DNA of 64,000 nucleotides, taken from NCBI GenBank assembly GCA_014898425.1, contig RCSZ01000010.1, positions 806,001 to 870,000 on the forward strand, read 5' to 3'. A program made the translations under genes and the position numbers. The notes beneath the pieces are model-generated. The model had not been told where the DNA came from. It saw only the letters and a list, made by a program, of their open reading frames with translations, and did no database searches. Shown here piece by piece: positions 3,001-34,785 of the stretch. How positions within the stretch are numbered: position 1 is the stretch's first letter; every line of letters begins with the position of its first letter. Source of the stretch: Botryotinia globosa. Its lineage: Eukaryota; Ascomycota; Leotiomycetes; Helotiales; Sclerotiniaceae.

Positions 3001-6000
3001 AATATATAAAGAAGTTATATTATAAGAATGTAAAATAAAATAAATAATAAGATTTTTTAAATATATTATTATTCCTTTTTTCTCCTTTTATTTTATTTAT
3101 TTGATTAATTTATTCTATTTTCTAAAAACTAAATAATATTAATTACAAATTTTTAGAATTCTAAAAATATATATATTTTATTATCTTTTCTTTTATATTT
3201 ACAAATATTATATAATTATATATTCAAATATAATAATAAAGTTGAAATGTAGTTGGTATAATATAATTATAATTAGTATATATCTTTTAATATTTCTAAA
3301 ATTATATATATTAATATTTTTATATAAATAAAAAGATATAGATTTAAATATATTTTCAAATATATAGGAGATTCTAGATTCCAAGTTGAATAAAAATAAT
3401 TCTTTTTTATATAAATAGTATAACTTATTTTATATAAGATAAATATATTAAAAAATTATTTAAAATCAAAATATAAATTTAAGTTTATCTTTTATTAAAT
3501 TAAAATAGATATTTATATAACTTGAATAAAATATTAAAGAATTTTTTAGGAGTTTAATTAATTAAAATAAAATATTATCTATTTTATATAATTAATTCAT
3601 TAGATCTTTATAATTTTCTTATTATTTTTATTTATTTATTTTTTTAAGAAAAATTCAATATCAATCTTGAATATTGATATTAATAAATAAAATAAGAAAG
3701 TTTATAATATTCCCTTTGAAATATATTCCAAGATAATAAATTACAAAAAGATTAGTGATTTATATTTAATTTGAATATTATATATATTTTAATTATATAA
3801 GGATTTATATAATTAGAGTTTATATAATTTTATTATTAAGAAAGCCAAGTTAATTAATCTTTTTATACGAATATTTATATAATTAGAAAGTATATTATAT
3901 TCTATTTATAAGTATTTCTTATAGGGTGATAATTAATAGTTTATATTTAAATAGAATATAATAATAAATATATAGTATATTTTATAATTCCATATTCAAA
4001 AGTAGGGATTTGATAATCTTTTTTAATGTTGATAAAGGGTATATAAGGATAACTCTAACTTTTTATTAGTATGATTAGAAAATATATAAATTTGAAGCTG
4101 GATGTATGAATATATTTGCTTTATTTAGAAGTATATTCTATAAGATTATAAATCATAATAGGAATCATTTAATTTCTCAGTAATATAATAATATATATAT
4201 TAATTCAATTTAATATTTTTATATAAATTTTGATATAGTTTTATTAATATAATCTATATTTAGTTTCTATATTATAATTATTTTAATAATTTATTTCTAT
4301 TTATTTTAAAACTTATAAATTATATTATTTCTATTTATTGATTATTTAACTATCTATATTATATTTGATTATAGAAATAATTAATTGATATATATATTAT
4401 TTCAAATAAAAAAATGATTAATATTTAATATATAATAAATTTATAATATTACTTTTATTGATTTTTTGGAATAATAAAGATAAATAGAAAAATAAAATTA
4501 GAAAGATATAATAGTATTTATAAATAATATCGAATTCAAGTAAATAAATTCTAATATTTATAGTAAGATTTATATATATAATATCGGAATAAAGAATTTT
4601 TAATTAATTATAGAACAATATTTTCAATACTTTCTATATTTATTATTAATTAAAAATAATATTCAATTATATTTTATATAATTAAAGAAATTTCAAAAAA
4701 AGTTTTTGATTTATAAATCTTTAAATAATATTATTTTATAATTAGAGTTTTATAAATTACAATAAATATTTATTATTGAATAAAATAAAAAGTTTTAATT
4801 TTAATTTAATTAAGTTTTGATTTATATTTGATTAAATATTATTATATTAAATATTGATTTAAACTAAAAATATAAATCTCTAAGAATATTATTATATATT
4901 TTGATTATTTTAAAAAGAATATTATATAATCAAAATATAGTAATTACTTATAGCTTATATTTATTATAATCTCATTCCTTTTCTTTAAATTATTTAAAAT
5001 ATTAAAGTAATAAAGCAAGTATTTATAAGGATATAAGAATATATATATATAATAATTGCTTAACAAATTCAAATAAGTTTAGCATAATAATAATCTCCCT
5101 TTCTATTAAATTATCTTTTTCCAAATTTTCTTATAATTAATACATTTGAAAAATAACTTAGTTTAATTAGTATAAATATATATCTAAACCCTTAAATATT
5201 AATATATTTCTTTTTAATAAGAATCTATTTATTATATTGATAATATATAATAGTTATTATATATTATATATATAATATGATTTTTTCGATTTATAAGATA
5301 TATAATCAAAGGTACTTATCTCATTATATCTTTTCTTTTCTCTTCGATTTCTTTATAAATTATTTTAATCTATACTTTAAATATAAAGCAAGGAATAATT
5401 ACTATTTTATATAAAAATATACTTTCATATTATAAAATTCCTATTTAATCTTTATTTCCAACTTTTAATTTAATTAAAAGCTAGTATTTATAGAATATAT
5501 TATTATCTATTCATTTTATAAAAAGGAAAATCAAATTATAAATAAATCTTTTTCAAAAAAATATTAATTTTGTTTTAATAATCTTTGAAAATATATAGCT
5601 TTATAAGCAAATATCTATTCATTAATAATATAACTTTTATATTCTAATTGTTTTGAATTTAATATATTAATAATATAATAATTCAATAATTCTCAATCAT
5701 CTAATAGAATTTTCGAATCTAATACTTTTCAATTATTAATCCTATAGAACATAATTCTTCTTACTTTAACTTCAATTTTTCCTATTCGAACTTTAGTTTA
5801 TCAAATTATACTCAAATATAAATTTGCTTCATCAATTCTATTCACTCAATTTACAAATTATTATTATATTTCTACACCTCAATAATAATATTCATCAATT
5901 TCTCACCAATCGTTTAATATATATCAAAATTCAATACCATTATTCTTATCTAATTATTATTCAATTTCTAATAATCAATTATTAAATTCAAATTATAATC

Positions 6001-7714
6001 AATTTATATTATTTAATAATTCAATATATTATTCAATCAAATAATCCCCTATCCCTTTATTATCATCTATATAATATCAAAATATTATCTTTATATAATA
6101 TAACCCCAAATCTTAATTCATTTATATTCTAACCTATACGAATTATATCAATAAAGTAAATACTTTTGCTACAATCAATTCAAATATTATACCATCTAAT
6201 ACACCGATTTTCAAAGTATTAACTTTATTTCAACCTTAACCTTATACTATTAGAAGATTATTATATAATTATAATTTAAATAAAAATGATTATATAAAAA
6301 CTAATAAAGTTTTGAGCTAGAAAATAATAATTAATGTTTTTATCAAATTTAATCAAAAATATAAAAAATATAATTTAAACTTTTCAGATTCTTTTATTAA
6401 AAAGATTTTATCATTAAATATCAATATTCTTATCTAGAATTATATAACCTTAAATACTTTTAAAAAATAATTTATATTTGATTCAAAAATTCAAATATAT
6501 TTTGAATTATATATTTCAATTGATAATTAAAGTTTTTAGATATTTTAAATTATTTGGAAAATCCCTATTTTTTAAATATAATTAAACGAGTTTAATTACA
6601 TTCTGATATTGAAAAATAAATATCAATTATATATTGGAAAATCTAATAGAAATAAACAAAAGATTACTAAATATATAATATACTTTCCCAATAATACTTA
6701 TATTATACTAAATGATTTCTTAAGACTAATATTTAGTAAGAATACTTATCTATTTCTTTACATTCTAATAAAATCAATAATATTATCATCAATCTTTTAA
6801 TATTATAATAATAATAATAACAATAATAAAGAATCTGAATTTTTTATTATAAAACAACTCATAAAAGAATCTTTATCTCAATAATAATTAATACTATTAT
6901 TACCTCACTCACTATCACAAACAATTTAGATTAATAATATAATACTTTCAATTGTTTTATTAATAAATCAATAAAATTTGAATCAAAATAATCTATTTAT
7001 ATTTCAAACTATCTTATTAATAAATTAATAAAATTTGAATCAAAATAATCTAATTATATTTTGAGCTATTTTATTAATAAATTAATAGAATATAAATCAA
7101 AATAATTAAATTATATTTCTAAATATTTTATTTGATTTAAATTGATAGAATATAGTTATTAATTATATAAAAAATCTAAAAAGAAGTTTTAAATTATTAA
7201 AAGAAAATAAGCTTACAAATTTACAAAAATGTATTATTTATTAAAATCTATAATTAGGTTTAAAATCAGATTATAATATATTATTCCTTTTTCAATCTTT
7301 ATATAATTATTATTTTGAATTCAATTGTTTTTATAATTAAATTAAAATATCAATATTAAATACATCTTTTCTTTTTGCTCTCAAAGTATTTTAATATTTT
7401 ATTTATAAAAATATATATAAAATTAATATCCTTATAAAAATAGAATCTATTAATATTGATTTATAATATATATTAATATTTATAATAATTAAGGATTCTT
7501 ATATTAGAAATAATTAATAATTATAAAACTTTTTAATTATAAATATTAATAAGGATTCTTTATTATTACCTTTAATATTATTAATTATCTCTATTATTAA
7601 CTTACAACCTTTAATATTATTAAATACCTCTGCTATTGCCTCTAACCTATAATCTTTAGTATTATCAAATATTTCTATTATTACCTTTAATTTATTATTA
7701 TTAATATTAAGAAT
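1..7714. other. Extremely AT-rich, RIP-type degraded DNA; no intact gene
   Basis: Nearly all of this stretch is A and T, rich in TpA, with stops in every frame. The few open frames are short, of biased composition (Ile, Asn, Lys, Leu, Tyr), and start at TTG or similar, so I call no gene. This is what RIP leaves of repeated DNA in Pezizomycotina. A 57-bp tandem array lies near 6,957-7,160. An irregular array of T-rich units starting ctttaatattatt occupies about 7,560-7,710, just before the LTR of element A. Beyond that I see nothing I can assign. Confidence 0.85.
6957..7160 (+). repeat. 57-bp tandem array, probably a decayed coding repeat
   Basis: Three full 57-bp units begin at 6,957, 7,014 and 7,071, each opening ttattaataaat, followed by a partial fourth. 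The period equals 19 codons. Read on the plus strand in the frame of 6,957, the units align as LLINxxNLNQNN. Stops occur at codons 5 and 6; at codon 5 the first unit still has CAA (Gln) where the next two have TAA, the expected RIP product. The original gene is not recognisable. Confidence 0.6.
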
Positions 7715-7719
7715 ATCAA

Positions 7720-7878
7720 TGTCACGGCGCCAACTACGTTACCTACATTGCCTTTGTGCCTTAGGCACAAACCCTTAGCATACCCTTAGCGTACCCTACT
7801 TCCTATAATAGAACCTCAATCTTTTATAATATTTAGAATCCTTATAATATAATATAAATCTTTACCTATACTCTGATA
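7720..7878 (+). repeat. 5' LTR of element A
   Basis: This copy is 159 bp, the same length as the 3' copy with no gap needed. It differs from the 3' LTR only by transitions, and these run in both directions: some sites are C here and T there, others the reverse. Both copies were therefore mutated independently. A perfect 8-bp inverted repeat TTTGTGCC/GGCACAAA around TTA lies at 7,753-7,771. Confidence 0.9.
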
Positions 7879-10800
7879 ATTTGTATCATTTATTTAAAAG
7901 CTATTATAATTTCATTTTAAAAGATACTTATTTAAAAGATCTCCAATCACCTCGATCACTCTAATCCTATTAAAATTACAATCTGATTGTATTAATTGAA
8001 TCTATTATTAATCCACTATAAATAATTTTACCATTTTTCAACAAAATTATCCGATTATATTAAAACATACCCATATTGATCCATCGACATTTTATAATCA
8101 CAAAAGTACTCTAGAGATGGCTGATTAAACGGCTGTATTTAGTCTACTCCTATAATTCCTTTTTTTGAATTACATTATTAATTCCATTGAAACTAATGTT
8201 TCCTTATTTATAAATCTATTCTATAATTCGAATATTATATATTTTATAGCTACTTAAACTATATTTACTTTGATTAAAACAATTATAACTTTATTATAAG
8301 AATAAGTTATTATAGCATATATTCAAATCAATAAAGTCTAATTATAGATTATCGAATTGTAAGATATAATTGAAATACTAAAGATTATTATTTATAATAA
8401 TCCAAAAGCTTCATTCTATTGAAAATACTTTATTTCTTTTGAAAAATTCAATAATAATAAGTAAGATATTGTAAAATATTAAAACTAATATATAGCGTTC
8501 CATAATATAATCAATTATTGTTTAACCACAAATTATAAAAACAAATCAGAATTCCAATAGATTATATTCCTTGTCAATTTATTTTTTAACTTGATTTATA
8601 TAAATAATCAAATATACTTTGATATAATTATAGATAATCCATATAACTCTAATCTCTAGTTTTTTAGATAATATATTATAACAAATATTTAAAGTGAATT
8701 GAATAAATAATATTAAATTCTTAATTTTTTATAAAAGATTTTTATAAATTATAATAAATATAAAATAAGGAAAACTCTATTTAATAATTTTATTATCAAA
8801 TTCAAGCAATTCATTATCAAATACAGAAAAACCATTGAATAATAAATCGTTAATCTCAAGTTCAAGATTTTATAAAAATTAATTAATATTTCAATTAATT
8901 ACTCTAATAAACTTTTTACTATTAATATTAATATATAAACAATTTGATAATAAAATATTTATAATAATCTAAAAGAGAAAATTTATTTTAATAATCAATA
9001 AAAAAACTAAAGTATTAATTTCAATTATAATCAATTGAGGTATTATAATAAAAAATCAGTTTTAATTATAATTCTTTTTATATTAAAATTATCTGATAAC
9101 TTTATATAATTGAATATCATTTAATAAGATTAATATCTTTTATTTTATTATATTTAAAAGCAATATTTTGATTTTAGCTTTTACTTTTATTATAAGAAAC
9201 TAGATTATATTAAAAATAATTATAATAAAAAACAAATCAATAATATAAAATACAATATTAATATTAATATAAAATACAATCCTTATACTAATTGTTTTCT
9301 TATAGCCAATTAATATTAGAGTTTTAAATTTTATTATAATATTATCAATTTCTTATATCAAAATCTATTTCTATTTACCAATTGTTTTCTATTTATTAAT
9401 TGTTTTTCAATTATATTATTATATTATATTTTATTGATTCCCTTTAATTTTATTCAAAAATTTAATTTAGAAGGATATATTAAAGAATCTATTTATTTAA
9501 AGAAAAATAAAAGTTTTATTCTTTAATTTGATATATCAAAAGATTAATCTTGATTTATAATTATAAATCGAAATTCTTTATAAAAAATTTATTTTTGTAG
9601 ATTAAAAGATTAATTATATCTAAGAATTCTTTATATTTTAGAATAATAAATAGCAAATCTTTTAAAATCTCAATAAAAATCTTTTTTATATTTAATATAA
9701 TCATTTTATTTATTAGTCTTATAAACAATAAAATTATGAGCTATAGTTTTATTAATAAAAAAATTGTTTTTAAACTTTAAATATCTATATACCCCCTTCT
9801 TTATATTTGTTATTTATTTTTAGTTAATAGAAAGCTTTTTAATATTCTTTTTCAATATATATTCTTGAATATATAAATCAATAATTATTAGAAAATTGAT
9901 TTGTTTTATATTATTATTTTATTAATTATAGATTTATTGATTTTTGATTTTTTTTAGCTTTAATATTATAACCCTATTATTAATTAGTTAGCAATAAAAC
10001 TCAAGTTTATATTTATATATTATTTAAAATATTATTATTCTATTAATATTATAACAATTATTGTTTTCAATATATCTAATAATTATAAAATAATTTTATT
10101 AAAAAATAATAAAGTTATAATTGATTCTAAACTACTTTTATAAAAGTTTGTTTTGAAATTAATTTTTATAAAAGATATTATTAATAAAAACTTTGAAATT
10201 AAGTTTTTATTATCTCAAGATTAATTAATAATTCTCAAATTTATCAAAATTCTGGATATTCAAAAAAACCCTAATATTATCAATCTTGAAAACAATAAAA
10301 ACAAAAATTTTTATTATATTTATTATATTAATAATAAAGCAAATATTCAAATTAAAATGATTTTTAATTATTTATTCTTGAAATCAATCTTAGTTTGATT
10401 TATTACTAATTCCAAAAAATATAAGAAATTATTATAAAATTAGAATATTTTATTTTCACTATTATTATTACTATCAAATCCCTTAAATAAACTGTTTAAT
10501 ATTATACAAAATATCCACTTCAAAATATAAAATATAAAGTTCTTTATAGTTAATAATTTTATATAATTCTATAAAAATAATAATATTTATATTACAAAAA
10601 TATTTTAGGATAAATTAAATAGGATTTATAATCTATATTATATAATAATCAAGAATTCTATTTAATTATATTAAGATTTAATAAATAATAATATTAATAA
10701 ATTTATAAAAAAAATAAATCAATTTATCCCTTCTATATCAGAAATTTAAAATAAACTATTTCCTTAGTTTTATAATCTATACCCAGAATTTCTATCCTTT

Positions 10801-10879
10801 TTTATCAACAAACTTTTATTATAATATTTATAGAATTATAAAATTGAGATTATACTAAACAAAAAACTACTATATAATA

Positions 10880-13500
10880 AAGACTATCCAATATCTCCAA
10901 TTAAATTTCAAATTGTTTATAAATGATTTAATAACAATTTAAATAAAAAATTTATTTAGAAATCTTATTTCTAATCAATCATTTTATTTCTTCTAATTAT
11001 TAAATCAGAAAAAGGTATTCGAATCTATTAAGATTATTGAAATCTAAATAATATTATTATTAAAAATCAATATTTTTTATTATTAATTAAAAAAACCCTT
11101 AATATTTTATATTATACTAAAATCTATATTAAGCTTAATATTATCATTGTTTTCAATAAATTATAAATCATAGAAGATTATAAATAAAAAATTACTTTTA
11201 TTATTTATTTCGATTTATTCAAATTATTAATAATACTTTTCAAATTTTGTAATATATTAACCTTATTTTAGAACTATATCAATTATATTCTCTTTGATTT
11301 TTTGAATAGAATTTACATAGTATATTTAGATAATATTTTGATTTACTTCGAGAATATTACAAATTATAGAAAATATATCTACAAGATTATCTAATAATTA
11401 ATCGATATTGGATTATAAATTGATATCAATAAATATAAATTTGAAATAAAAAGAATCAAATATTTTAATTTAATTATTATTTTAGAAGGTATAAAAATAA
11501 ACCCAAAGAAAATTGATATTATATTTAATTAGAAATTATTAATTAAATTTAAAAATTTTTAATATTTTCTTGAATTTATTAATTTTTATTAATATTTTAT
11601 TTATAATTTTTCTAAGATTGTAGAGCCCCTTAATTGTTTTTTAAAAAAGGAGAAAATATAAAGCTAGAACTCTAAATAGGAAGATATTTTTATAATATTA
11701 AAAAACATTTTCTTCTTTATTTCAATCCTTATTATATTTGATTATTATTATTATATAATAATCAAAATTAATATTTTTGATTAGATTATAAATAATATTC
11801 TTTTGCAATATAATAATAAAAAAAATCTATATTTTATGGTATACTTTTTATCAAAATATAATATTATTAAATATAATTATAAAATTTATAATAAAGAATT
11901 TCTAGTAATTATAAAATTATTAGAGAAATAAAAATCAAAATTATATAGTATTTAGAAATTATTTGAAATTATTATTGATTATAAAAACCTCGAATATTTT
12001 ATATTAATAAAAATATTAAACTAATAACAAATTAAATGAATCAAATTCTTATTGAAATTTAATTTTTGTATTATATATTAATTTAATTATAAAACTATTC
12101 ACTTCAACATTTTGAATTATAAAATTGAAGATTACCTAATATATATCGATTTTAATTATAATTGAATTAAGAATTGTTTATAAATAATTCTTTCAAAATA
12201 GATATTTAATATCATTATATTTAAGAATATTATTTGATAAATGAATAACAATTTAAATCTGATTATAACCCCAATAAATATAATTATTCTTAATATTAAT
12301 AAATTGATTGATAATTTTATTAATAAAATATATAAATTATTCAAATTAGTTATAATTATATATATAATACTTCGAAATCCTTCTGCCTACTATTAACCAT
12401 TAAATATTCGAAAGGATCTTTGAATAGCCTTATAAGATTATAGATTAATTAATAATAAAATCTTCTATTATAACCACCTCTTTGTTCCCCCCTCTATCGA
12501 ATTTTGTATACAAATTATATATTGTATATATTCAATCAAATTAGTTGGATACCCAGACCATATCAAAACTATCAACCTTATCTCTCATATATATTAATAA
12601 TCCAATATATCTAAAAAGATCAAAATATTCATATAAACTTATTAACTCTATTTTTATATCAAAACCTCCCACCTCATTACACCTAAATTCCTTAAACCCT
12701 TATTAATATCATTTTATTTTTAATTAAATATCTCTATCAATTATATCATATTATTACTAATTAATAAATATTACAAAAAGAAATATTAATATATTATTAT
12801 AATTATTTATTATTTAATCAAAATATAATATTTTATATTAATAATAAAATTATCTATAAAAAAATTTGTAAATCAATTTATTAAAAAGATATATTATCTA
12901 TATAACACTCCCAATAATATTATATCCAATAAAAACTCCCAATTCATCTCTAAATTCTAAAAACATCTATCCAAACATTTATTAATCACTTTGAAATGAT
13001 TTTCCTCATTTTATCCCAAATCCAATAATCAAATGAAAAAGATTAATACTATAATTAAATAATATCTTCATATTTTTATAAACTTTTACTAAAATAATTA
13101 ATTCGATTAATTTCTATTTATAGAATTTATATTAAATAATATTATATTAGAAATTATTAGTATATCCCTATTCTTCATTAATTACAATTACTATCTATAC
13201 CTCGAAATTGAATTATTTATATCAATTTTATTAAATCTATTATATCAAAAAAAATAAAAGTTCCTCAAAACCAATAAGATTATAAATAGATTTGATTTTA
13301 TTCTAATCAAATTTAAAACACTTATAATTTAATCAATCTAAAAATATAAAGATTATATTAATAGAATCCAAACTAATATTTCTTTTTACAAAAAAAATAA
13401 TAAGATATAAATTAATATAAAGAATATAAAAACCAATCATTTAATAAAAAAGAATAATAATAAATAAAATAATTTTTACAAAATCTTTAAAGTTTATAAA
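10880..13500 (+). pseudogene. Ty3/gypsy pol relic of element A (RT, RNase H, integrase)
   Basis: No frame is open, but the polymerase pattern is clear when stops are read through. Around 10,880-11,180 the text matches the start of the RT (YPISPIKFQ..., then a GIR..DY..LN..IIKN.Y-like block). At about 11,320-11,350 the catalytic box reads YLDNILIY, so the second Asp of the YxDD motif is Asn, a G-to-A change. At about 11,600-12,100 come FSKIVEPLN and the TDHK-like RNase H tail. From about 12,530 a GYPDH..TI.LIS segment and a PLLIS stretch match the integrase zinc-binding and linker region. Boundaries are approximate. Confidence 0.75.
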
Positions 13501-14164
13501 CAAATCTACTTATTACAACTTTTAGCCAACTTCAAGATTTTTTCAATATTTTATAACTTATTATTTTAATTGTTTTATTATTTATTGGGATTATTAGGTC
13601 AAGATATTATCAATATCATTGAATTATATAAAAATCAAAACCAAGTTTTTAAAAAAGATAACAAAACATATAAAAAGATTAAACAATAAAAATTCGAAAA
13701 GATTCTCGATTATTATAATAAATATAATTTTTATTATTATATCAAATGAAAGTATTATTTATTATTATAATAACTAGTTAAAAATTTCCAAAATTAGAAA
13801 AAAATGATTATTGTATTTCATTTAATATATTTGAATAAATCAAATCTATCTATATAGATTGAATTCAAAAAATCGATTATTTCGAATATTATTATATCAA
13901 AAATAATTTTTAAATAAGAATTGGATAGATTGAAAAAGATTTGTTAATTAACTATTATCTTAAAAACAATTCGCTTTAATCTTGTAATAGAAATTAAAGT
14001 GTTCTAGTATTATTTTAAGGGATTTTGAGTTGTTATTTAATTAATTTAGATATAATGATAAGCTGGCCTGTTAAACCAATCCTTTATAACTTTGCTATTT
14101 TTTAATAAAATTATAACCTATACTTTAGCTTGCTTAGAACAAGCAAACCCTAAGGGGGGGGTAC

Positions 14165-14323
14165 TGTCACGGCGCCAACTATATTATCTATATTGCCTTT
14201 GTGCCTTAGGCACAAACCCTTAGCGTGCCCTTAGCGTGTTCTATTTCCTATAATAGGGCCTCAACCTTTTATAGCACTTAGAATTCTTATGGTATAATAT
14301 AAGTCTTTACCCGTACCCTGACA
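14165..14323 (+). repeat. 3' LTR of element A
   Basis: This 159-bp repeat is preceded by the polypurine tract and followed by the ATCAA target duplication. It carries the same 8-bp stem, TTTGTGCC/GGCACAAA, at 14,198-14,216, at the same offset (33) from the LTR start as in the 5' copy. The stem is unchanged in both LTRs although the flanking bases have drifted. Confidence 0.9.
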
Positions 14324-15482
14324 ATCAAATCCCTTTATATATAATTAAAACTCACAATAATTAATCTTAAAAAGATCTAGCTCCCTAATATATAATTAGT
14401 AATTATCTATAGAAAATATTCCCCAAAACTATAATCAATAATATATAACTTTATATAAGATATAAAATATATATTCTCAAAATCATATATTATGAATTAT
14501 ACGAAAATGAATAATATTTTAAGTCAAATTATTTATATATAGAAATAAACGATTTAATATTTTATGTCTTAATATTATTAATTAATATAGTTCTTCTAAC
14601 TCTTCTTTTAATCTATTTCTCTATTATTTTTTTTCTAAATTATTATTTTTTGTATTTTATATAAGAATAGTTTTGAATTATATTTATATATATTATAAAT
14701 AAGGAAATAAATATATTATTTAATAAAAAAAACGAAATGTTTTTATAAACAAAATGTTTTTATAATTAAAATATATAATTTGATTATTCAATAAAATATA
14801 ATTGAATATTCTATTATTCTATAAACTATATCCCCTTTTTATAATAATTACTTTTATTTTTTTCAAGATATATTATAATAAAGTATTAGACTTCTTAAAA
14901 CTTATATTTTTAATTATAAGATTTTTACTTTTAATTTCTAATATCTAGATAAATTGAAAAAAAAATTTAAATTGAAAATATTTCAAATAATTGATTTTAT
15001 ATAAATTGATTAATATATAAAGTCAATATTGTTTATAATATATAGAATATTTGTATAATTTCCTTAATAATTTTATTAAAATATTTAGTTATTATATTTC
15101 TTTAATTATTTATTAATATATTCCAAAATTAATATTAATAAAAAAAAATAAAAAGAAAAAAGTACAAACTTTTTAAATTCTCCGAATTGTTATTATAAAA
15201 TATACCACCTTTTGCCCTAATTATTTCTTGTTTTTATAATAATTAATATAATATTTAGTTTTTGATTATAAATAATACCAAATAAATATTAAAATTAGAA
15301 TTATTTAAATCTAAAATCCAAGGATTTTGAGATATTTAATTAATTAATTAAGTTATTTATATTATCTTTTTATAAAGGTATTTTTATTCTATATTATTTA
15401 TTACTTTTGAAATTATCAAAAATTGATTTTTCTATTCTTTTAAAAAAGATTAATATTTATTAAATAAAGATTGATCAATTTT

Positions 15483-25600: not shown

Positions 25601-26159
25601 AATAAAAATAATGAAAAAAAAGAAAAGAAAAAAATATAATAGAAGAATATTGATTTCCTTAATGAAAAGGATAATAAAAAAAGAAAAGTAGATAATGAAA
25701 TTGATAGCTTTGAAAACCCAAATATTATTTGATTATTTAATGAAAATAATAATAAAAGTAATAACAAGATAATAAAACAAAAAGATATATAAAAAAAAGA
25801 TTTAAAAAAGAAAAAAAAAAAGTTTATAATTCAATAAAAAAGAAAGAGAATAGCTAAAGTTTCTTTAATATTTAATTAATGAATTCTATAATTTCCTTTA
25901 TATATTTGAAAGATTAAAAATAAATAAAAAACAAGAAATGTATTCGATTTAGATATTGATATGAATATAAGGATTGAAGTATATATACTTTATAAAATAA
26001 ATATAATATGAATGGAATAGGTTTTGATATATTATTTATCAATTCTATATTTAATAGATAAATATTCTTTTAATAATATTATAAAGATTATCAAGGAAGT
26101 TATTATTATAAATTCTACTATTCTAAATATTAATATTTTATTTATAGTTTTTAAACTAC

Positions 26160-26629
26160 TCTGATATTTATAATCTTTAAATCTTCTATAATATCTATAG
26201 CTTCCAAACTATTTATAATATCTACAATCTCCAAATTTCCTATAATATTTATAACCTTCGAATTTCCTATAACATTTATTATTTCTAAACTTTTTATAAT
26301 ATCTATAACCTTTGAATTGCCCCGATATTTATAGTTTTTGAATTATCTATAATATTTATAATCTCTGAATTGTTTATAATACCCACAGTTTTCAAACTTC
26401 TTATAATACTTACAATCTTCGAACTATTTATAATACTTATAGTTTTCGAACTTCCTATGATATTTATAATCTCTAAACTTCTTATAACATTTATAGCCTT
26501 TGAATTTCTTATAATATTTACAATCTTCGAATTTCCTATAATACTTATAACTTCTAAACTTCTTATAATACTTATAATCTCCGAATTTCCTATAACACTT
26601 ATTATCTTCGAACTGTTTATAATATCTAC
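26160..26629. repeat. 27-bp minisatellite, left part (interrupted by element B)
   Basis: About 17 units of 27 bp, each opening tataatat or tataacat. One unit is 26 bp. The array stops in mid-unit at 26,629, where element B begins, and resumes at 34,655. The length is nine codons and both strands are open in one frame. The minus strand reads YYRKFEGYK-like nonapeptides; the plus strand reads hydrophobic FELxIILTI-like ones. Which strand, if either, was coding is undecided. Confidence 0.85.
26626..26629. other. Target-site duplication CTAC, left copy of element B
   Basis: CTAC lies directly before the TGTGAGCG start of the 5' LTR and recurs directly after the 3' LTR at 34,651-34,654. Removing the element and one CTAC joins tataatatctac to aacctttaaattatt, which is exactly one 27-bp minisatellite unit. 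This confirms both insertion points. Confidence 0.9.
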
Positions 26630-26869
26630 TGTGAGCGAATCTTTGTGCTGGTCACGTGGTCCACTTCTGTAACTAGTATTTATAGCCCTTTTCCTTGTAG
26701 TTTAAAAAGAGCAGTCAATTCCTATCCACTAAACTTCTAGTATGTTTTGTGAAGTGCTATGTAAAGCCTCCCCCTCCTCTCTCTTATCTGAAGCGATATG
26801 TTATGGTGATTTTCCTGTAGTATATATAAAGGACTATTTTATAATCTTATCACTTTTTACTTTTTTATA
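26630..26869 (+). repeat. 5' LTR of element B, RIP-mutated
   Basis: It aligns without gaps to the 3' LTR over 240 bp. The first 40 or so bases are identical. After that I count about 33 differences, all transitions, and in every one this copy has A or T where the 3' LTR has G or C. The downstream bases tggtaattta (26,871 on) are the only candidate for a primer-binding site, itself probably mutated. Confidence 0.92.
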
Positions 26870-28440
26870 TTGGTAATTTATGTAGGGAAGAATGTTGAAA
26901 GATTAGAAAGTTGTATGTAAATTTGAACTTTTGAATTGCTTTAGAAAGCAGAAAGTCATTGGTTTGGAAAAGTTGATAGGAAATAGGGGAACAAGGAACT
27001 ATTTAGTATTGCAGTAAAATCAAAATGATAATGGTTTGATGATGGAAGGAGAGGGGGGAAAAACAAATACCTTATCTTCAAAATCGATTTGTAGTTTTGT
27101 ATGAATCTAAATTGGAGATAAGATTGCTTTTGATTGAATCATTTTTATTTTTTTTGAAAGGTTGTAAGAATAAATCATAAAAATTTCGTTATCTACAGAA
27201 TTTGTAAGAATTTGGATAAAGATTTGATTTTGAAGGAAAAAGTTTTCTTTTATGAAGTGGATTTAAAATTTGTTGGTTAGTATTTATCTTTGTATTTAAG
27301 GTTTGGTAAATATTGAGTTTATTTAGAATTTTCAAGATTATTTTGGTTACATTTATATTTAGGTAGGATTTGAAAATTCTAAGAAACTTAAAAACAATCT
27401 ATATCGAGGTTAGAAGTGCTATGTTGTTTAATTTAATTGAAAGGATTATTTATAAAGATAGTCTTTTTGTTTCTAAAGACAAATTTCTAGATGTATTTCT
27501 GAGAGAAATTTGAAATTCGAATTTCTTAGAACAAATTGCTAATTTATATTTTTGAATTTTTGTGAATAAGTTTGTAGTTATATGAGTTTGAAAAAAAAAA
27601 GTAACTTTATCAAAATTTGACAAAGTTATTAGAAGAAAAGTGAATAGGGTAGCAATCGAGTCTCTATTTATATTACACCGAAAACCTTTTAAATCTCTAT
27701 ACAATCATCCGATTATTGCAACCATCCATTAACAAAAACGAAATCACTTAATATAACAATAAAATCTATATTATATCAATCTCCGACTTCAATAATAAAT
27801 CCAAAATCTAGGATAATCATCCAATTATAGATTCAGAGTTTTCAAGCTTATTAATTAACCTTGATATTTTCAATATAGATAATCTCGAAAAGAATACTTC
27901 TAAATCAAATATTTTTTTTATATCCAATTGAAAAATAAATAAGAGCAAAAAACCCGATAAAAATTTCAACCCAAAACTCTTGGAAGGGAATCTCAATATC
28001 CAGTAATTCGCTGCTTTTCTAGAATACTTTTCAAGAATTCTTATACCTCCAATACTACCTCCTGAAATTATTGATATACCATAATTCAAGAGTTCCAATA
28101 TTACCGAATAATATAAAGGTATAAAACAATTTTAATGAAATTATTATATTCCAAATGAAAATTTCCAAATATAAATCTCTTTATAAATGGATTGTATATT
28201 TTGAAAGGAAATTAAAGTTATAAAGAAATAACAATCTAAAAAATAAAATTGAAAAAAACATTTCAAATCTGCTTTCCTTAAGGAGTATTTCAATAATAAT
28301 ATCCTTTAGAAAATGTATTTTTACAAATATCTACAAAAATTTGTTAAAAAGTATAGATAGGAAGGAGGCATTAGATATGACAATCTTGGTTGTTTTGTTA
28401 GATAATATAATCAAATTGTATAACAATTGATTAAAAATAA
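26870..28440 (+). pseudogene. Element B leader and gag N-terminal relic
   Basis: AT-rich and full of stops. A motif tatgtagggaagaatg at 26,880-26,895 resembles the polypurine tract at the other end of the element apart from G/A changes, and contains an ATG. Minus-strand open frames at 27,450-28,098 are shadows with no motifs. By position this should be the untranslated leader and the first part of gag, but I can show no protein match here. Confidence 0.45.
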
Positions 28441-29704
28441 AGCTTCAACAAAAAGTAAAGTTATTGAACTATTCCTCAAAAATATGCCTTTTAAAACCTT
28501 TCAAAGATATATCATTTAAATCAAATACAATATAAAATGATCAAGTATAATAGATTGGAATAAAGTATTTAATTGAATAATTCAATATACTGAAAATAAG
28601 TCCCAATACATTCTTCTCAATATAAGCGATAACAAGGATTCTAATTTCGATGAATTATTGGAATCTGCCACTCTATTTATAAAGATTTGGGATAAAGCAA
28701 AAATCCCAATAATTTAAAGAAATGATGGAATAAAGAAAATAATAAAAGCTTTCAAGAATTTTATATTTGTTATAAAAAAACAAATGTAATTAGGTTTTAA
28801 GTCTAAAAAAAAAATTGAAATCCATCAGGTTTTTTTCAATTCAAAAGCAATGGAAATACTTTAGATTTCAATTTGTAAATTTATATAGGTTACAGCACCT
28901 ATTATTATCAATACTATTATTAACTTAAAGATAATGGAAACTATATATACAATCTATAAGAGAATATATTATAATTGCAATAACAAATAATCTAATAACA
29001 AAGACTATATTCTAAAAAAAGATTGCCCGATTTTTAAAAAGTATTTTGATAGAGGATTCGTATACTACAATAGGCTGGGATAGTTAATATGGGGGTTAAT
29101 AGATGGCTCAGATAATCCTGCTCCAATCATGCATAACAGCAGAATCGGCCCCAGCTTAGTAAAAGTGATTAGGTTGCGAGCTCTCCAAAACGATTGGCTG
29201 AAACCCTCTGAGGATAAGGAAATGTTACACTTTATCAACATCAAGGAAGAACCCACTGATACTGCATTAGAAGGGAAAGTATATACCATTCAAGAGTATA
29301 TCAATGCTACAGAGGAGGCGCAAAGGAGATGCGGAAGACTATCTTACAACAACTTGGATAAGGTAATCAAATCATACCTGAGTACCTCTGCGAAACCTAT
29401 GCCCTCATTTGCAAACAAAATCCTTAAACTCGGTCGACAACCTATGATCGAGATATCCTTTCAAGAGTCTGTACAGGCTGAATTAATGGAAATCTATACT
29501 TATAATCCTGAGAACCCTGCAATAAAAGTTGTAATCGAAAAAGTGCTGGATAAAATCAAAAAGCCTAGGAAACAAATAATTCCCCAAATAATGAACAATA
29601 GCTATAGGATAGTAGAGGAAGTTGATTGGAATATTCTATCAATTACAATCCCTGTTACCATAGATTTCATTATCAAAGAATACCCCAATATATGGAAAAG
29701 GTGA
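28440..29704 (+). pseudogene. Element B gag relic with zinc-knuckle remnant
   Basis: Reading through stops, the segment before 29,050 is gag-like. At about 28,970-29,030 the text CNNK..SNNKD.....KKDC recalls a CCHC zinc knuckle with changed residues, followed by PIFKKYFDRG. A frame then stays open from ATG 29,129 to 29,704 (191 codons). It includes DGSDNPAP just upstream of the ATG and HNSRIGPSLVKVIRLRALQ, the link between nucleocapsid and protease in fungal gypsy elements. This piece is less damaged than its flanks. It is part of a broken polyprotein, not a separate gene. Confidence 0.65.
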
Positions 29705-29812
29705 ATTATGAAAATAAATGATCTGATAAAACCATCAACCCTTGATAGTTATATAATAAATTTGATTAACAAACTTCCTACCTCGTTCAGATCTTCAGAA
29801 TAAGTTGGAGCT

Positions 29813-30229
29813 ATGAAAGCTTTCCATTCGGATGTAATCTATAGTTCTATTTATATTTCTACAGAAGATAACAGAAAAGATTTTTCTTATATTAGGGTAT
29901 CTTTTAACAATCAAGGCTTTGTTAAAACAATTCCAGATTCTAGTTCGACCATCAACTTAATCGATGTCGATTTGGTTATGAAATTCAATCTGTCAATTAG
30001 TTTGGTTCAGATTACCATTATTGAAATCAGTCCTCTCAAAACTAATATTAGGGGTCTTTATAAGAATATATATATATCCCTTGAAGGAATATCAAACATT
30101 ATTAGTTTATTTGTGATGAAAAACGCACATAACGATTTGTTACTTGGAATACCGTGGCTCATTACAGATGAAGTCATATTCGTATACAAAAATGGATTGC
30201 AATATATTACAATAATAAATGATGATTGA
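29813..30229 (+). pseudogene. Element B retropepsin-like protease relic
   Basis: A frame of 138 codons covers the aspartic protease of the polyprotein. The active-site region reads PDSSSTINLID, where the family has Asp-Ser/Thr-Gly; the Gly is Ser here, a single G-to-A change. The flap-proximal end NDLLLGIPWL matches the family's hDLLLGxPWL. The frame is separated from the gag piece by stops in the same frame, so it is a fragment. The altered catalytic triad suggests an inactive product. Confidence 0.7.
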
Positions 30230-30599
30230 AAGAACCAAGCAAATATTTGGTGCACTGGATAAAAGACGATTGTACCCTTTCGAGTTTCAAATCTGAGAAA
30301 CTAGAGTTTGATATACTCAGGGGACAATATATCGGGACAAGTTTATGCTTCTCATTAGAAAATAATTTTGTTGAATTCTAGCAAAGTTGTCTTTTATCTT
30401 ATATAAATATCTTATATAAGAATAAGGTAAATAAGATACTTCCTTTAAGTTAACCTGGAAACCTTACAAACGAAAGGCTAGAAGGGAGAAGTAATTGGCT
30501 GAAAAAGTATAAGGAAAGAAACCTTTATTTGCAACCTTCAAAAGAATAAAAAGATTATCTGATTCTACGATTCAATAAGGAATCTAAAGGTTATCATTT

Positions 30600-31660
30600 A
30601 ACTATAGATAGATATAAAGAAATAGATTTTGAGAAAATACTTTCTACTTGTGAACAAGAACTATTATTTGCCTACTTGCTAAATCGAGAAGGAGTGTTCG
30701 CCTTTGACTGGATACATACTGAATGAGTGTAAGAAGAAGTAGCTTTTTCACAGAAAATACGAATTGTCCTACACAAAGCTTGGCAAATACCTGAATTTCC
30801 TATTCCAAAAGCCTTGGTTGAAACTGTATCCAAAATACTTCGAGAAAGAATGGACCAAGGAGTTTTTGAATATGCGGATGGTTTTTATAGAAATCTGTGG
30901 TTTTTAATAAAGAAAAAGACTTCTAGTGTCTACAGATTCATAAATACAGTTGTTGAACTTAATAGACATTCGATTAGAGATGCAAATCTATCTCCAGATA
31001 CTGATACCTTTGCAGAAAACTTCGCAGGATGTCGAGTCGCTTCCCTAATCGATTTCTTTTCGGGTTACGATCAGATTCCTCTAACTATGGAGAGTTGCGA
31101 TATAACTGCCTTTCAAACACCACTTGAACTACTACACTATACAACGTTGCTACAAGGTGCCACTAACTCCATTGCCCAATTCTACAGAATTATTATGAAA
31201 ATTCTGGGCGATTTAGTTCTTGAAACGGCTATACTATTTCTAAACGATATAGGAATAAAAGGATTTAAGATTGACTTTAGCAATAAGGAAATTATACCTG
31301 GAATACAGAAATTTATTCTTACACACATTCAAGGGATTAATAAAACCTTGGAATATATAAAAAGAGCAGAATGTTCAATTGAAGCGAAATCCAAATAATG
31401 CTTTGATGGTATAGAAATTGTGGGGTATATTGTAGAATCTGAAGGGCGAATTCTATAACAATCAAAAATCGCTTGGATTATAGATTAGCCTGAACCCAAG
31501 GATGCTACAAAGGTTTGTATGTTTTTAGATGTATGTGTATACTATCGCATCTAGATCGAACAATTTGCTCAAAAAGCCGAACCATTATACCGCCTATTGA
31601 AAAAAGACTGGGAATTTGTATGGACAGAAGAACAGAAAGCTAAAGCAGACACATTGACGG
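30600..31660 (+). pseudogene. Element B reverse transcriptase and RNase H start, relic
   Basis: RT begins near 30,600 (CEQELLFAYLLNREGVF) and is open from 30,814 to 31,398. LIDFFSGYDQI, TAFQTPLELL and LQGATNSIAQF match conserved fungal gypsy RT blocks. The catalytic box reads FLNDIGIKG, so the first Asp of the xxDD pair is Asn, consistent with RIP of GAT to AAT. Downstream, VCVYYRI is followed by TAG where Trp is usual (TGG to TAG), then AEPLYRLLKKDWEFVWTEEQ, the start of RNase H. Similarity to pol stops near 31,660. Confidence 0.8.
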
Positions 31661-31662
31661 AG

Positions 31663-34218
31663 ATGGCCATGGTCCTAATTCTACGGGATAATCTTCACAT
31701 CAAAGCTCATGTGACGACAAAGCAAATGAAAATCGACAATGAAACCGTCCTCCTTAGAGTAGAAAAATCCCGCGAACTACGGCAAAAGGCCATCGACAAA
31801 ATTCGTGCGTACTGGGGCCACTCGCAGAAAGGCATAACGTTCGCCACAATTTTGATTATGTCTTATGGTACGAAATTTCACAATGAGCTCTCCAAACTGG
31901 CTAGGATCGCTACTCCAGAAACCGTGTTGGAACTGGTTAACGGGGAACTCATACGCAGACTCTCTGGAGACCCGAAACCTGGGGTTCGAGTTAATCGGCA
32001 TCTGATGCCCTCCGAATTCAAAATTGCTCTCAGAATTCTGGACAAAAAGCTCCCCGATAAACCCTTCGAGTGGGACGACGAGCAAAGAAGAAAACTTGGC
32101 CTCCAATACAATATGGTTGGAATGCTTGGAGAAGCCAGTGCAGACTACTCCGAAGATATCCCCCCCGTTGGAGATTCAGTTATCGAGTTTTTGCAAGTTC
32201 CTCCCCCTCCGCCCTCGGAAGACGTCCTCACGAATCTCCAAAGGTGGTCAAGACTTGGCTTGGCAGTAGTAGACGAAGACACCGAACCACTCAACGAATG
32301 CTTGATGGACAAAATCATACCTCGACAAGGTGTCCTGCCAGGAAGTGAAGACGAGGAAGATGAGGATGATGATGTCAGCCAACCCAAAGCATGCAAATGC
32401 GCAGAAGGTGTTCTACAATCACAGGATTGGTTTCACCTGCTGAAGGAAAAGTATGTTGCGAAACAAGTGGGTTGGAGGGCAATGGTGATGTTGGTAGACA
32501 AGATGCCTGATAACCTTTGTGGCTACCACCTACGTCAACTTGCCAGTGTTCTTGGGCTCAAAGCTGCACGCATAAGCCGAAAGGACCTGTTAAAACGTCT
32601 TCGGTTTCTGTACAAACGTCAAGACCGAATCGACGATATCCGTATCAACGACAGGTACTTCCATTGGTTCAAAGAAAGCGCGGTAGCTAGTAAGGAAAGA
32701 AGGGCGAAGCTTCTTGGTGTGTTAAAATTCAAACCCATCAAGCGCAGTGCTGCTGCACCTGTGATCGTTCAAGCCCCTGCCGCTGGCCTGACCGCGGTCC
32801 ATAGGCTCGGAGTGTATGAGCCTGCGGAACCCGATAAATATCTTCATCTCACTGGAAAAGTCTACACTCCTTTGATTCAAGAGTCCGTAAGAATGTACTG
32901 CCACCACAACCGCTACGAGAATATGGGACTCGGATTCGCCCATCACTGCTACTACTCCCCAATGCAACAAGCCTCCAGACGGGACCTAAAAATCTGGCGA
33001 ACCGTTGCATTGCAGCGCATGGATCGGGAATTTCGTCTCATCTCTATTCCTTTCCCAGCCGTCATCATTCAGTCTAACGAGACCTTCGATCATACGTTCG
33101 TGCATGGAAACGCAAGAGAACTTTACGCTAAGCATCGACTTAGGTATGCAGACGACCTCACTGCATATGTCGTTCACTCTCAATCTAAAAAGTCAAAATA
33201 CGGAGTAGGGCATGGCAGAGTAAAATCAGAATCGGAACATGAGACGACGTGGCGGGATCTCGCTGCATCCACCTTAGGAACGTTTAGTAAGCTTTTCGAG
33301 AAAGGTTACTTTCAGGACATTACTTCAAAGAAAGGTTACGCGGGGTACACTCATTTGATTGCCTCGGCACAGTTCGTTGGAAAAGCTAACCGCAACTGGG
33401 CACTTGTAGTTGCGGGGAATCCTGTGACGTTCAGAATCAGGCCCAACAATGAAGATGTTGTTCCCTTTATGGTGTCAATTGTACCGTATACCACAGTGAG
33501 AAGACTCCCAGGGGGCGATTTGGACCCTACACTGGGAAATGGGTTGAAATATCAGGATGTTAGGAACGCACATCGTGACTTGAAACCTATCTTCGACAAA
33601 CATGTCACCAACAACGGCCAATATGAAGTTCCTGGATTCCCAGTTGAGTGTCACTTAACTGCTCAAAATCCTGTCGAACAAGCTCTCGTCGGTGAGCTCC
33701 CTTGGGACGATTTGTCTGTGCTCAAAGAAGCTACTAGGCTTCTTTCTATGGACAACGACGAATTCAACGCTTGGTATCAGCATTATGCAAAAGATACCAA
33801 GAGCTCTCTCTTGCGCGCTTTTGAGGACGCCAAGTCTGTTGAGAGACACTACGGGGATAAGTCGTACTTTGCAACCTTGGAGCAAAACCCGGAGGACGGA
33901 CATGACAACAGGTACTTTGAGCCCGATGAAGAAGGGGAGAACGAGCCAATCCCATCAAGCAGCGACGATGACGAAGATAGCCCTGACCCTGGGCAGGACA
34001 ACGGAGGACCTTCCGGTACTCCGGGGAGCAGGAGATCGAAGAGAATGGCGACTCCTTTGGAGGATGAAGGCCAAGAGGAGGAAGTACAAGAACCCAATTC
34101 TCCCCACCGATCCCCGAGGACTCCAAGGAGCTTGCGGAAACCTAAAAGGATTCCGGACCCTTTGACTCCCTCCCGGAGAAGCAAAAGAATTCGCCGTCAA
34201 GCTCCTGTTGGTACTTGA
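31663..34218 (+). CDS. Intact long ORF of unknown function inside element B (about 851 aa)
   Basis: One frame is open to TGA at 34,216-34,218. It is continuous upstream with RNase H, so the start is uncertain: ATG 31,663 (good context, gagATGGcc), ATG 31,726, or a pol fusion. The product matches no family I recognise. Visible features, in order: a proline run (VPPPPPSED, about 32,197-32,223); an acidic run (GSEDEEDEDDD, about 32,341-32,373); a helix-loop-helix stretch with LRQLASVLGLKAARISRKDL (about 32,533-32,592) that resembles a SAP DNA-binding motif; and a low-complexity acidic then basic C-terminus with two SRRSKR motifs (about 34,030 and 34,171), probable nuclear localisation signals. 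Base composition is normal and it has no RIP damage, unlike the adjoining pol. The best guess is a host or foreign gene captured by the retrotransposon. Confidence 0.75.
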   Translation: MAMVLILRDNLHIKAHVTTKQMKIDNETVLLRVEKSRELRQKAIDKIRAYWGHSQKGITFATILIMSYGTKFHNELSKLARIATPETVLELVNGELIRRLSGDPKPGVRVNRHLMPSEFKIALRILDKKLPDKPFEWDDEQRRKLGLQYNMVGMLGEASADYSEDIPPVGDSVIEFLQVPPPPPSEDVLTNLQRWSRLGLAVVDEDTEPLNECLMDKIIPRQGVLPGSEDEEDEDDDVSQPKACKCAEGVLQSQDWFHLLKEKYVAKQVGWRAMVMLVDKMPDNLCGYHLRQLASVLGLKAARISRKDLLKRLRFLYKRQDRIDDIRINDRYFHWFKESAVASKERRAKLLGVLKFKPIKRSAAAPVIVQAPAAGLTAVHRLGVYEPAEPDKYLHLTGKVYTPLIQESVRMYCHHNRYENMGLGFAHHCYYSPMQQASRRDLKIWRTVALQRMDREFRLISIPFPAVIIQSNETFDHTFVHGNARELYAKHRLRYADDLTAYVVHSQSKKSKYGVGHGRVKSESEHETTWRDLAASTLGTFSKLFEKGYFQDITSKKGYAGYTHLIASAQFVGKANRNWALVVAGNPVTFRIRPNNEDVVPFMVSIVPYTTVRRLPGGDLDPTLGNGLKYQDVRNAHRDLKPIFDKHVTNNGQYEVPGFPVECHLTAQNPVEQALVGELPWDDLSVLKEATRLLSMDNDEFNAWYQHYAKDTKSSLLRAFEDAKSVERHYGDKSYFATLEQNPEDGHDNRYFEPDEEGENEPIPSSSDDDEDSPDPGQDNGGPSGTPGSRRSKRMATPLEDEGQEEEVQEPNSPHRSPRTPRSLRKPKRIPDPLTPSRRSKRIRRQAPVGT

Positions 34219-34245
34219 TCTTGGGGTTCCGCTAAGAAGCTGTTT

Positions 34246-34270
34246 AACTTTGCCAAATCTTGGCAAAGTT
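34246..34270 (+). terminator. Perfect 11-bp inverted repeat after the element B ORF
   Basis: Arms AACTTTGCCAA and TTGGCAAAGTT flank a 3-base loop, 28 bp past the stop codon. It could form a strong RNA hairpin near the 3' end of the transcript. A terminator or processing role is inference. Confidence 0.45.
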
Positions 34271-34372
34271 ATCTTTCTTCTGTAATACTTGTTGAGTTGA
34301 TTGTGTTGAGCAAGGGCAGTGTTTGTTTTTTTTTCTTTGACCATCTTCCTTCACGTTCTCGTGCCTGGGTTT

Positions 34373-34410
34373 ATTGATCGAGGCGATCAATGTTTCTATG
34401 TGGGGAGGAA
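34373..34410 (+). other. 8-bp hairpin followed by polypurine tract of element B
   Basis: ATTGATCG/CGATCAAT with loop AGG lies at 34,373-34,391. The purine tract tggggaggaa (34,401-34,410) directly abuts the TGTGAGCG start of the 3' LTR, as expected for the plus-strand primer of an LTR retrotransposon. Confidence 0.7.
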
Positions 34411-34650
34411 TGTGAGCGAATCTTTGTGCTGGTCACGTGGTCCACTTCTGTAGCTAGTATTTATAGCCCTTTTCCTTGTAGTTTAGAAAGGGCAGTCAGT
34501 TCCCACCCACCAAACTTCTAGTACGTCTTGTGAAGCGCTATGTAGAGCCTCCCCCTCCTCTCCCCTGTCTGAGGCGACACGTTACGGTGACTTTCCTGTG
34601 GTATATGCGAAGGACTACTCTATGACCCTACCACCTTCTACTCTTTTACA
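34411..34650 (+). repeat. 3' LTR of element B, not RIP-mutated
   Basis: This 240-bp copy keeps the C and G bases at all of the roughly 33 positions where the 5' copy has T or A. It contains a TATA-like tagtatttatagc box and ends CTTTTACA. It is followed by the second CTAC target copy. Confidence 0.92.
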
Positions 34651-34785
34651 CTACAACCTTTAAATTATTTATAATATTCATAGCTTTCAAACTTCTTATA
34701 AAACCTATAGTTCTCCAACTTCCTATAATATTTACAGTCTCTAAATTTCCTATAAAATCTATAGCCCCCGAAATATTTATAACTC
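34651..34785. repeat. 27-bp minisatellite, right part
   Basis: The array resumes after the target duplication with about five more units in the same register. It then dissolves into AT-rich sequence near 34,785. The minus-strand frame here reads YRFYRKF, CKYYRKLE and YRFYKKFE, matching the left part. Confidence 0.8.

What the first reader, a model, noticed from the sequence alone, without database searches (positions are those of the whole stretch)
31600..34410. Intact 850-codon ORF of unknown family riding in a gypsy retrotransposon
Within an otherwise RIP-ruined element, a 2.5-kb frame with normal base composition is fully open and ends just before the polypurine tract. It carries a SAP-like stretch, acidic and proline runs and two SRRSKR basic motifs, and matches no retroelement protein I know. 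It may be a captured host gene, a domesticated factor or a retrotransposon accessory gene. Gypsy elements with an extra 3' gene (brtn) are described in Botrytis; whether this is a homologue is unknown.
Basis: partly seen in the sequence, partly recalled or inferred. Interest (0 to 1): 0.88.

Follow-up and report, generated by a model that had tools for sequence, protein, structure and literature searches.

The report
Accessory gene of a Botrytis retrotransposon
The long open frame is the extra gene at the 3' end of a Botrytis jumping gene that was active recently; here it was left unmutated while the fungus's mutation defence damaged the rest, and it lies in an element whose genes are separated by a short mirror-image sequence found about 600 times in this genome.

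Summary
Observation confirmed. The 887-codon frame 31555-34218 lies in a Ty3/gypsy element (LTRs 26630-26869 and 34411-34650, 4-bp target duplication). Its first ~24 codons are the end of reverse transcriptase, fused in frame to the inside of a ~930-940-aa accessory protein; RNase H, integrase and ~85-95 N-terminal residues are missing (2.69-kb deletion). The accessory gene belongs to the family: 25 of 26 RT loci found carry it downstream on the same strand. Against 15 of 27 other copies the window ORF differs almost only by C>T/G>A changes in those copies (0-10 transversions in ~2.6 kb), so its intactness shows escape from RIP, not selection. Homologues found (capped search) are Botrytis only, 52-64% identical where a host protein is 92-93%: it evolves like an element gene. 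brtn is titled an antisense gene; this ORF is sense. Domestication in this window is unlikely: start region lost, 5' half RIPed. Unexpected: a 25-nt palindrome stands at five gene boundaries of this family and at three fixed places in Boty-like elements; its RIP-tolerant form occurs 598 times, control 2. The protein's function is unknown; two structure predictions failed.

The parts
26626..26629 (.). 4-bp target-site duplication CTAC, left copy
   Evidence: the five other copies with both ends read have ATAT, TTAA, ATAA, GTAT, ATAT. Joining the flanks restores the phase of the 27-bp array (match 0.67 at period 27, 0.29-0.38 at the other periods 24-30).
26630..26869 (+). 5' LTR, 240 bp, RIPed
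   Evidence: 33 differences from the 3' LTR, all T/A here against C/G there.
27603..27627 (.). 25-nt palindrome hp1, upstream of gag-protease, RIP-touched
29084..30229 (+). RIPed gag-protease remnants (two open pieces in one frame)
   Evidence: second piece matches RVP_2 weakly (E 0.0019, below cut-off).
30364..30388 (.). 25-nt palindrome hp2, between protease and RT
30733..31398 (+). RT remnant
   Evidence: RVT_1, E 2.4e-7, 31.1 bits, above cut-off.
31555..31626 (+). end of the RT frame, read in frame into the accessory ORF
   Evidence: Follows the pol side of full copies up to ~31624-31628.
31617..31639 (.). deletion junction in a short imperfect repeat shared by pol and accessory ORF; 2691 bp missing against 3 copies, 2688 against a fourth; RIP ends here too
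31627..34218 (+). accessory ORF, interior and C terminus, almost unmutated; first ATG at 31663
34246..34270 (.). 25-nt palindrome hp5, 27 nt after the stop codon; folds as RNA with z = -5.3
34400..34410 (+). polypurine tract
   Evidence: GTGGGGAGGAA directly before TGTGAGCG of the 3' LTR.
34411..34650 (+). 3' LTR, 240 bp, almost unmutated
   Evidence: RIP fraction 0.03.
34651..34654 (.). 4-bp target-site duplication CTAC, right copy

Best explanation
The ORF is the sense-strand 3' accessory gene (here 'ORFx', ~930-940 aa) of a ~10.7-kb Ty3/gypsy family of a Botrytis species, order gag-protease, RT-RNase H, integrase, ORFx, LTR. SHOWN: the gene accompanies nearly every RT locus found; the 15 compared copies were almost identical before RIP; the window copy has a 2.69-kb internal deletion that fuses RT to ORFx in frame; RIP struck it only 5' of that junction. 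INFERRED: this copy landed late, when ORFx in the other copies was already too mutated (best copy 72-78% identical to an unmutated one) to be recognised by RIP, while the first ~1.2 kb was still 84-88% alike and drew RIP that spread inwards; a deletion between short imperfect repeats, before insertion by template switching or after it, removed the transition zone. GUESSED (about 0.35): the full ORFx protein, with a strongly conserved N-terminal half, a CHH-x11-HHC motif and an acidic/basic tail, binds nucleic acid and helps the element's RNA or particles at the nucleus, as is reported for CERV of Cer1.
For: 25 of 26 RT loci have ORFx on the same strand, 2903-3005 bp downstream (window 160). 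ORF compared with 15 of 27 other ORF clusters: 681-923 C>T/G>A, 0-6 reverse, 0-10 transversions in 2412-2598 sites. RIP fraction in the window 0.16-0.47 before 31600, 0.01-0.03 after 31640 including the 3' LTR; the 15 others 0.45-0.76 in the ORF bins. Matching 4-bp duplication and restored 27-bp phase: one insertion. RNase H models match 3 of 3 full copies read (over the cut-off in 1), an integrase zinc domain 1 of 3 (below cut-off), inside the segment the window lacks. Identity by bins. dN 0.27 with dS saturated between window ORF and C24, 839 codons. RIP limits of ~80% and ~400 bp: passages of PMC10787394. CERV: title and abstract start of PMC10309623 in a search listing.
Against: The identity of the best copy does not step down at the junction: it is already 0.76-0.82 from 1.2 to 5.2 kb, where the window is RIPed, and 0.77-0.82 in the deleted part, so a threshold alone does not place the RIP edge; identities are those of today, not of the time of insertion; only four copies cover the first 1.6 kb. 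RIP can act below 80% where short matches are interspersed. In two copies C>T hardly depends on the next base (0.55, 0.56, 0.55 before A, C, G; 0.42 before T), unlike the CA/CT bias reported for B. cinerea (PMC8365987), perhaps through saturation. Integrase core (rve) was not found in the family. Two AlphaFold jobs failed (mean pLDDT 36.2 and 40.9), so the protein's role has no structural support. Four of 29 ORF clusters have no RT match nearby. Confidence was lowered from 0.80 to 0.75 on re-checking the identity bins.
Confidence: 0.75

Rival explanations
1. The window locus is a chimera: a RIPed copy whose 3' third was replaced by gene conversion or recombination with an unmutated copy or cDNA, or an assembly join of two copies.
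For: RIP changes stop within some tens of bases of the deletion junction, while the identity of other copies does not step there.
Against: The target duplication matches and the tandem array is in phase across the element; the 3' LTR is almost unmutated to its last bases, so the tract would have to end at the LTR border; no second copy of this family without stops was among the matches in the assembly.
Confidence: 0.25
2. ORFx has been domesticated as a host gene, at least at the C24 locus, and perhaps kept by selection in the window.
For: C24 holds an intact 943-codon ORFx with its own ATG, divergent from all other copies, with no gag or RT match within about 6 kb upstream; long-term constraint on the protein; intact homologues in B. 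cinerea, P0001 and P0002.
Against: The C24 gene is followed by the same palindrome, a polypurine-like run and a diverged LTR (64% over 146 bp, E 1.9e-8). The proteins are only 52-64% identical between the five sequences, against 92-93% for a host transporter of the same window. B. porri has the gene as two neighbouring models (P0003, P0004). The window copy lacks the start region and has no substitutions to test.
Confidence: 0.15
3. The ORF is brtn, the published additional gene of Boty-like elements.
For: Both are extra genes in Botrytis gypsy elements.
Against: brtn is antisense by its title; ORFx lies on the strand of RT at 25 of 26 RT loci. The one intact Boty-like pol of this genome has no ORF of 200 codons behind it but AT-rich DNA. 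No protein named BRTN among the few homologues returned. The sequence of brtn was not compared.
Confidence: 0.05
4. The ORF is an ordinary pol piece or a chance open frame.
For: Its first ~24 codons are pol.
Against: No Pfam match for the rest; conserved over the rest of its length in B. cinerea and B. porri proteins; shuffles reach 252 codons.
Confidence: 0.02

Closest known systems
LTR retrotransposons with additional ORFs (PMC7264820, passages and abstract start seen; rotifer ORF3 families, PMC5408684, abstract read)
   Same: Extra gene besides gag and pol, lineage-specific, often of unknown function.
   Different: No Pfam relation to the enzyme or env types named there; flanked by the element's own palindromes.
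brtn of Boty-like elements (Zhao et al. 2011, seen only as a citation)
   Same: Extra gene of a Botrytis gypsy element.
   Different: Antisense by title; this one is sense. Sequences not compared.
BcGypsy1-4 of Botrytis cinerea (PMC8365987, passages read)
   Same: Gypsy subfamilies of the same genus, RIP-damaged, with additional ORFs drawn in that paper's supplementary figure.
   Different: The supplement could not be read, so whether ORFx is among those ORFs is open.
Conserved Hairpin Site of fungal GalEa Copia elements (PMC5445492, passages read)
   Same: A palindromic motif conserved across families of fungal LTR elements.
   Different: One site right after the 5' LTR, 9-bp pieces, a priming role suggested; here 25-nt palindromes stand at gene boundaries, up to five per element, in Gypsy elements.

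Membership tests
Ty3/gypsy LTR retrotransposon | Paired LTRs with target-site duplication | tested here: met
   240-bp LTRs, CTAC/CTAC
Ty3/gypsy LTR retrotransposon | protease, RT, RNase H, integrase in this order | tested here: inconclusive
   RVT_1 above cut-off in the window; protease weak; RNase H models in 3 of 3 full copies (over cut-off in 1); integrase only a zinc-domain match below cut-off in 1 of 3
LTR retrotransposon with additional ORF | a non-gag-pol ORF present in most copies, inside the LTRs | tested here: met
   25 of 26 RT loci; an LTR follows the ORF in 14 of the 15 copies read (L010-L021, L023, L024; none found for L022)
brtn | antisense orientation to gag-pol | tested here: not met
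   ORF on the strand of RT at 25 of 26 RT loci, the 26th without a match in range
brtn | sequence homology to BRTN protein | not testable with these tools
   sequence not held; name absent from the homologue lists
domesticated host gene | host-like identity and synteny across species | tested here: not met
   52-64% between ORFx proteins versus 92-93% for a host protein; synteny itself was not testable
domesticated host gene | purifying selection after leaving the element | tested here: inconclusive
   dS saturated between C24 and window ORF; no second allele of C24
SAP-domain protein | match to the Pfam SAP model | tested here: not met
   not reported at E up to 1 (window ORF) or 5 (four homologues and C24)

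The most novel reading that the evidence does not exclude
A shared 25-nt palindrome marks the gene boundaries of several Botrytis gypsy families and works as a common module joint: by template switching between palindromes during reverse transcription the elements swap or gain whole gene cassettes, and ORFx, bounded by palindromes 25 nt before its ATG and 27 nt after its stop, is such a gained cassette. The same RNA hairpins could in addition allow separate translation of the split gag-protease, RT-RNase H, integrase and ORFx frames.
Probability: 0.2. Interest if true: 0.78.

Novelty: new variant of a known kind. Interest (0 to 1): 0.55.

Why it matters
Accessory genes in gypsy elements are a known kind, but this is a large protein without a Pfam relative, and the homologues found are all from Botrytis. 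The window copy keeps its interior almost unmutated beside more than twenty RIP-broken copies, and RIP stops there at one point, which is a natural case for asking what sets the limits of RIP. The palindrome, 598 places in one genome against 2 for the control pattern, would be a new cis-element of fungal gypsy retrotransposons, as far as the five literature searches here show, and makes the question of how such elements gain and express extra genes testable.

Tried and rejected
Ordinary pol or integrase segment: rejected for all but the first ~24 codons. Host gene under selection in the window: dN/dS among copies is not usable, since the copies differ almost only by RIP transitions. RIP protection by the ORF being unique in the genome: rejected as first put, because the 15 compared copies were nearly the same sequence before RIP; replaced by the late-arrival reading, which itself does not explain the sharp edge. 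Plasmid collection: no match. PDB by sequence: one weak match, E 0.25. Structure: two AlphaFold jobs, mean pLDDT 36.2 and 40.9, so no fold search was run. Pol relics beside the C24 gene: one RNase H-like motif seen by eye; Pfam none at E 0.1 and no tblastn hit of the Boty-like pol there at E 1; a pol hit about 6 kb further lies in AT-rich DNA between its own direct repeats. Palindromes away from known elements: 6 of 21 unplaced sites were read, GC 0.15-0.24, no open stretch of 110 codons, no hit. A possible third family: two stretches, six frames each, no Pfam match at E 0.1. A first placing of the 47 intact palindromes gave 23 of 47; it used 19 of 89 gag rows and too short a range, and the recount with 68 rows gave 26 of 47. 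Literature on the motif: with Botrytis/Boty; wider; 10 of 34 listed; letters of the core; 15 of 183 listed; none of the titles or abstract starts listed describes it. Supplements could not be read.
Full report
The observation. The frame 31555-34218 is open for 887 codons; 500 shuffles of the same bases gave at most 252. Its GC is 0.49; the gene-bearing right part of the window has 0.42, the flanks of the element 0.12-0.14. Pfam reports nothing for it up to E = 1.

The element. The ORF lies between two 240-bp LTRs (26630-26869, 34411-34650) with CTAC on both outer sides; five other copies with both ends read also have matching 4-bp repeats. Joining the flanks restores the phase of a 27-bp tandem array (match 0.67 at 27, 0.29-0.38 at the other periods from 24 to 30), so this is one insertion. 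The genome is a Botrytis: a host transporter at 62066 is 93% identical to B. porri and 92% to B. cinerea.

The ORF is a family gene. In the own genome 26 RT loci were found with the window's RT and 29 ORF clusters with the ORF; 25 of 26 RT loci have the ORF on the same strand downstream, at 2903-3005 bp, the window alone at 160 bp (lists are lower bounds, and the pairing looked for the same strand only). Four ORF clusters have no RT match nearby, one of them C24. In the C13 copy, used as a coordinate frame with 15 further rows (the window among them), frames without a stop common to all rows run 1624-3675 (gag-protease), 3753-5390 (RT-RNase H), pieces from 5526 to 7142 (integrase region, interrupted by two common stops) and 7446-10280 (ORFx, 944 codons). 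The first conserved start of ORFx is at 7494, ATG in 9 of 15 rows and ATA in the others, which gives about 928 codons. Rows fall to about five in the first 1.2 kb, so common stops there mean little. RNase H models match 3 of 3 copies read, over the cut-off in one, beginning at about the junction; an integrase zinc domain matches 1 of 3 below the cut-off. The integrase core was not found in the family.

The deletion. The window copy leaves pol and enters ORFx at about 31624-31628, inside a short stretch where the two are alike; 2691 bp are missing against three copies and 2688 against a fourth. This removes RNase H, integrase and ORFx's first 85-95 residues, so the frame is a fusion.

RIP. Against 15 of the 27 other ORF clusters (those fetched), the window ORF shows 681-923 C>T/G>A changes in the other copy, 0-6 in reverse and 0-10 transversions over 2412-2598 sites. 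The low protein identities of those copies are therefore mostly RIP. In bins, the window is changed at 0.16-0.47 of mutable sites before 31600 and 0.01-0.03 after 31640, 3' LTR included; the others at 0.45-0.76 in the ORF bins. The two LTRs differ at 33 sites, all T/A on the left against C/G on the right, so RIP came after insertion. The best compared copy is 0.84-0.88 identical to an unmutated element in the first 1.2 kb (four copies there), 0.76-0.82 from 1.2 to 5.2 kb and 0.72-0.78 in the ORF (14-15 copies). With the roughly 80% and 400-bp limits of RIP (passages of PMC10787394) this suggests a late arrival whose 3' part found no partner. But identity does not step at the junction, so the sharp edge needs a further cause: the deletion removed the transition, or pairing stopped there; a chimera or assembly join remains possible. 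In L010 and L011 C>T hardly depends on the following base (0.55, 0.56, 0.55, 0.42 before A, C, G, T), which is not the usual RIP bias.

Selection and relatives. The protein homologues found, among the about 8000 best candidates of two capped searches, are B. cinerea P0001 and P0002 and two neighbouring B. porri models, P0003 and P0004. Identities among window, C24, the two B. cinerea and the B. porri proteins are 52-64%. Between window ORF and C24, 839 codons give dN 0.27 with dS saturated: long-term constraint on the protein, but no evidence about the window copy. C24 holds an intact 943-aa gene; 21 nt after its stop codon comes the palindrome and 178 nt after it an LTR-like sequence (64% over 146 bp, E 1.9e-8); the stretch around that LTR matches nowhere else in the genome. 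So C24 too came from an element.

The palindrome. Comparing the 3' ends of window and C24 genes showed a shared 25-nt palindrome, with changes on both arms that keep pairing. In the family it stands at five places: before gag-protease, between protease and RT, between RNase H and integrase, 25 nt before the ORFx start and 27 nt after the ORFx stop; in purine/pyrimidine letters the 14-letter core occurs at these five places only of 10,712 bases (about 0.65 expected by my arithmetic). The intact core occurs 47 times in the genome, control 0; the RIP-tolerant form 598 times, control 2. Of the 50 places listed of the 598, all on C1 and C2, 20 stand at fixed offsets to Boty-like gag (-110 to -131, +1938 to +1988, +5939 to +5960, one at +6215), 12 at fixed offsets to the window family's RT, 18 are unassigned. 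Of the 47 intact ones 26 are placed (22 in Boty-like elements, 4 in the window family or at the C24 gene) and 21 are not. The window itself holds six RIP-tolerant matches, three in each of its two gypsy elements. In the Boty-like element with intact gag and pol the middle palindrome lies inside the open pol frame. Among the 38 different intact sequences, pairs 8/18 and 9/17 match better than shuffles (16 and 4 of 2000 reach the observed count), pair 10/16 does not, and pairs 11/15 and 12/14 match less often than shuffles, as in a loop; the outer seven pairs are fixed by the search pattern, and related sequences can exceed shuffles without structure. Of six RNAs folded, four fold clearly better than shuffles (z -3.4 to -5.3), one moderately (-2.4), and one, before C24's ATG, does not (-0.6).

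What it does. The protein's role is unknown. Conserved features over the five sequences are a dense N-terminal half, a CHH-x11-HHC cluster and an acidic tail with basic motifs. A helper in RNA handling or nuclear steps, as reported for CERV of Cer1 (title and abstract start seen), is my guess. For the palindrome I see three roles: joint for module exchange, RNA signal for expression or packaging of split frames, or DNA site of a host protein; nothing here decides between them.

Noticed in passing
window 7720-14344: A second, Boty-like gypsy element: repeats 7720-7899/14165-14344, RIPed gag at 8117-9544, and three RIPed palindromes at 8024, 10092 and 14088, about the places usual for that family.
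   Followed up: partly
L009 829-3657 (contig C24:69828-72656, minus): Intact relative of the accessory gene with its own start on a 301-kb contig, with palindromes before and after it and a lone diverged LTR behind it.
   Followed up: partly
L025 (contig C1:3845000-3854999): One Boty-like element with gag and pol free of stops, where the other 30 pol loci scored carry stops (31 of 417 candidates were scored).
   Followed up: no
L049, L050 (contig C1:707200-713400): Palindromes in pairs 60-66 bases apart with a partner 3.7-4.7 kb away at three loci of contig C1: perhaps a third element family; no Pfam match.
   Followed up: partly
family copy C13, 3673-3753 and 5388-5526 (coordinates): Stops at 3673, 3750 and 5523 in 15 of 15 rows and at 5388 in the rows present separate gag-protease from RT and RNase H from integrase; gag-protease and RT frames do not overlap, so simple frameshifting would not join them.
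   Followed up: partly
window 26139-26625 and 34669-34755: The element sits inside a 27-bp tandem array.
   Followed up: partly
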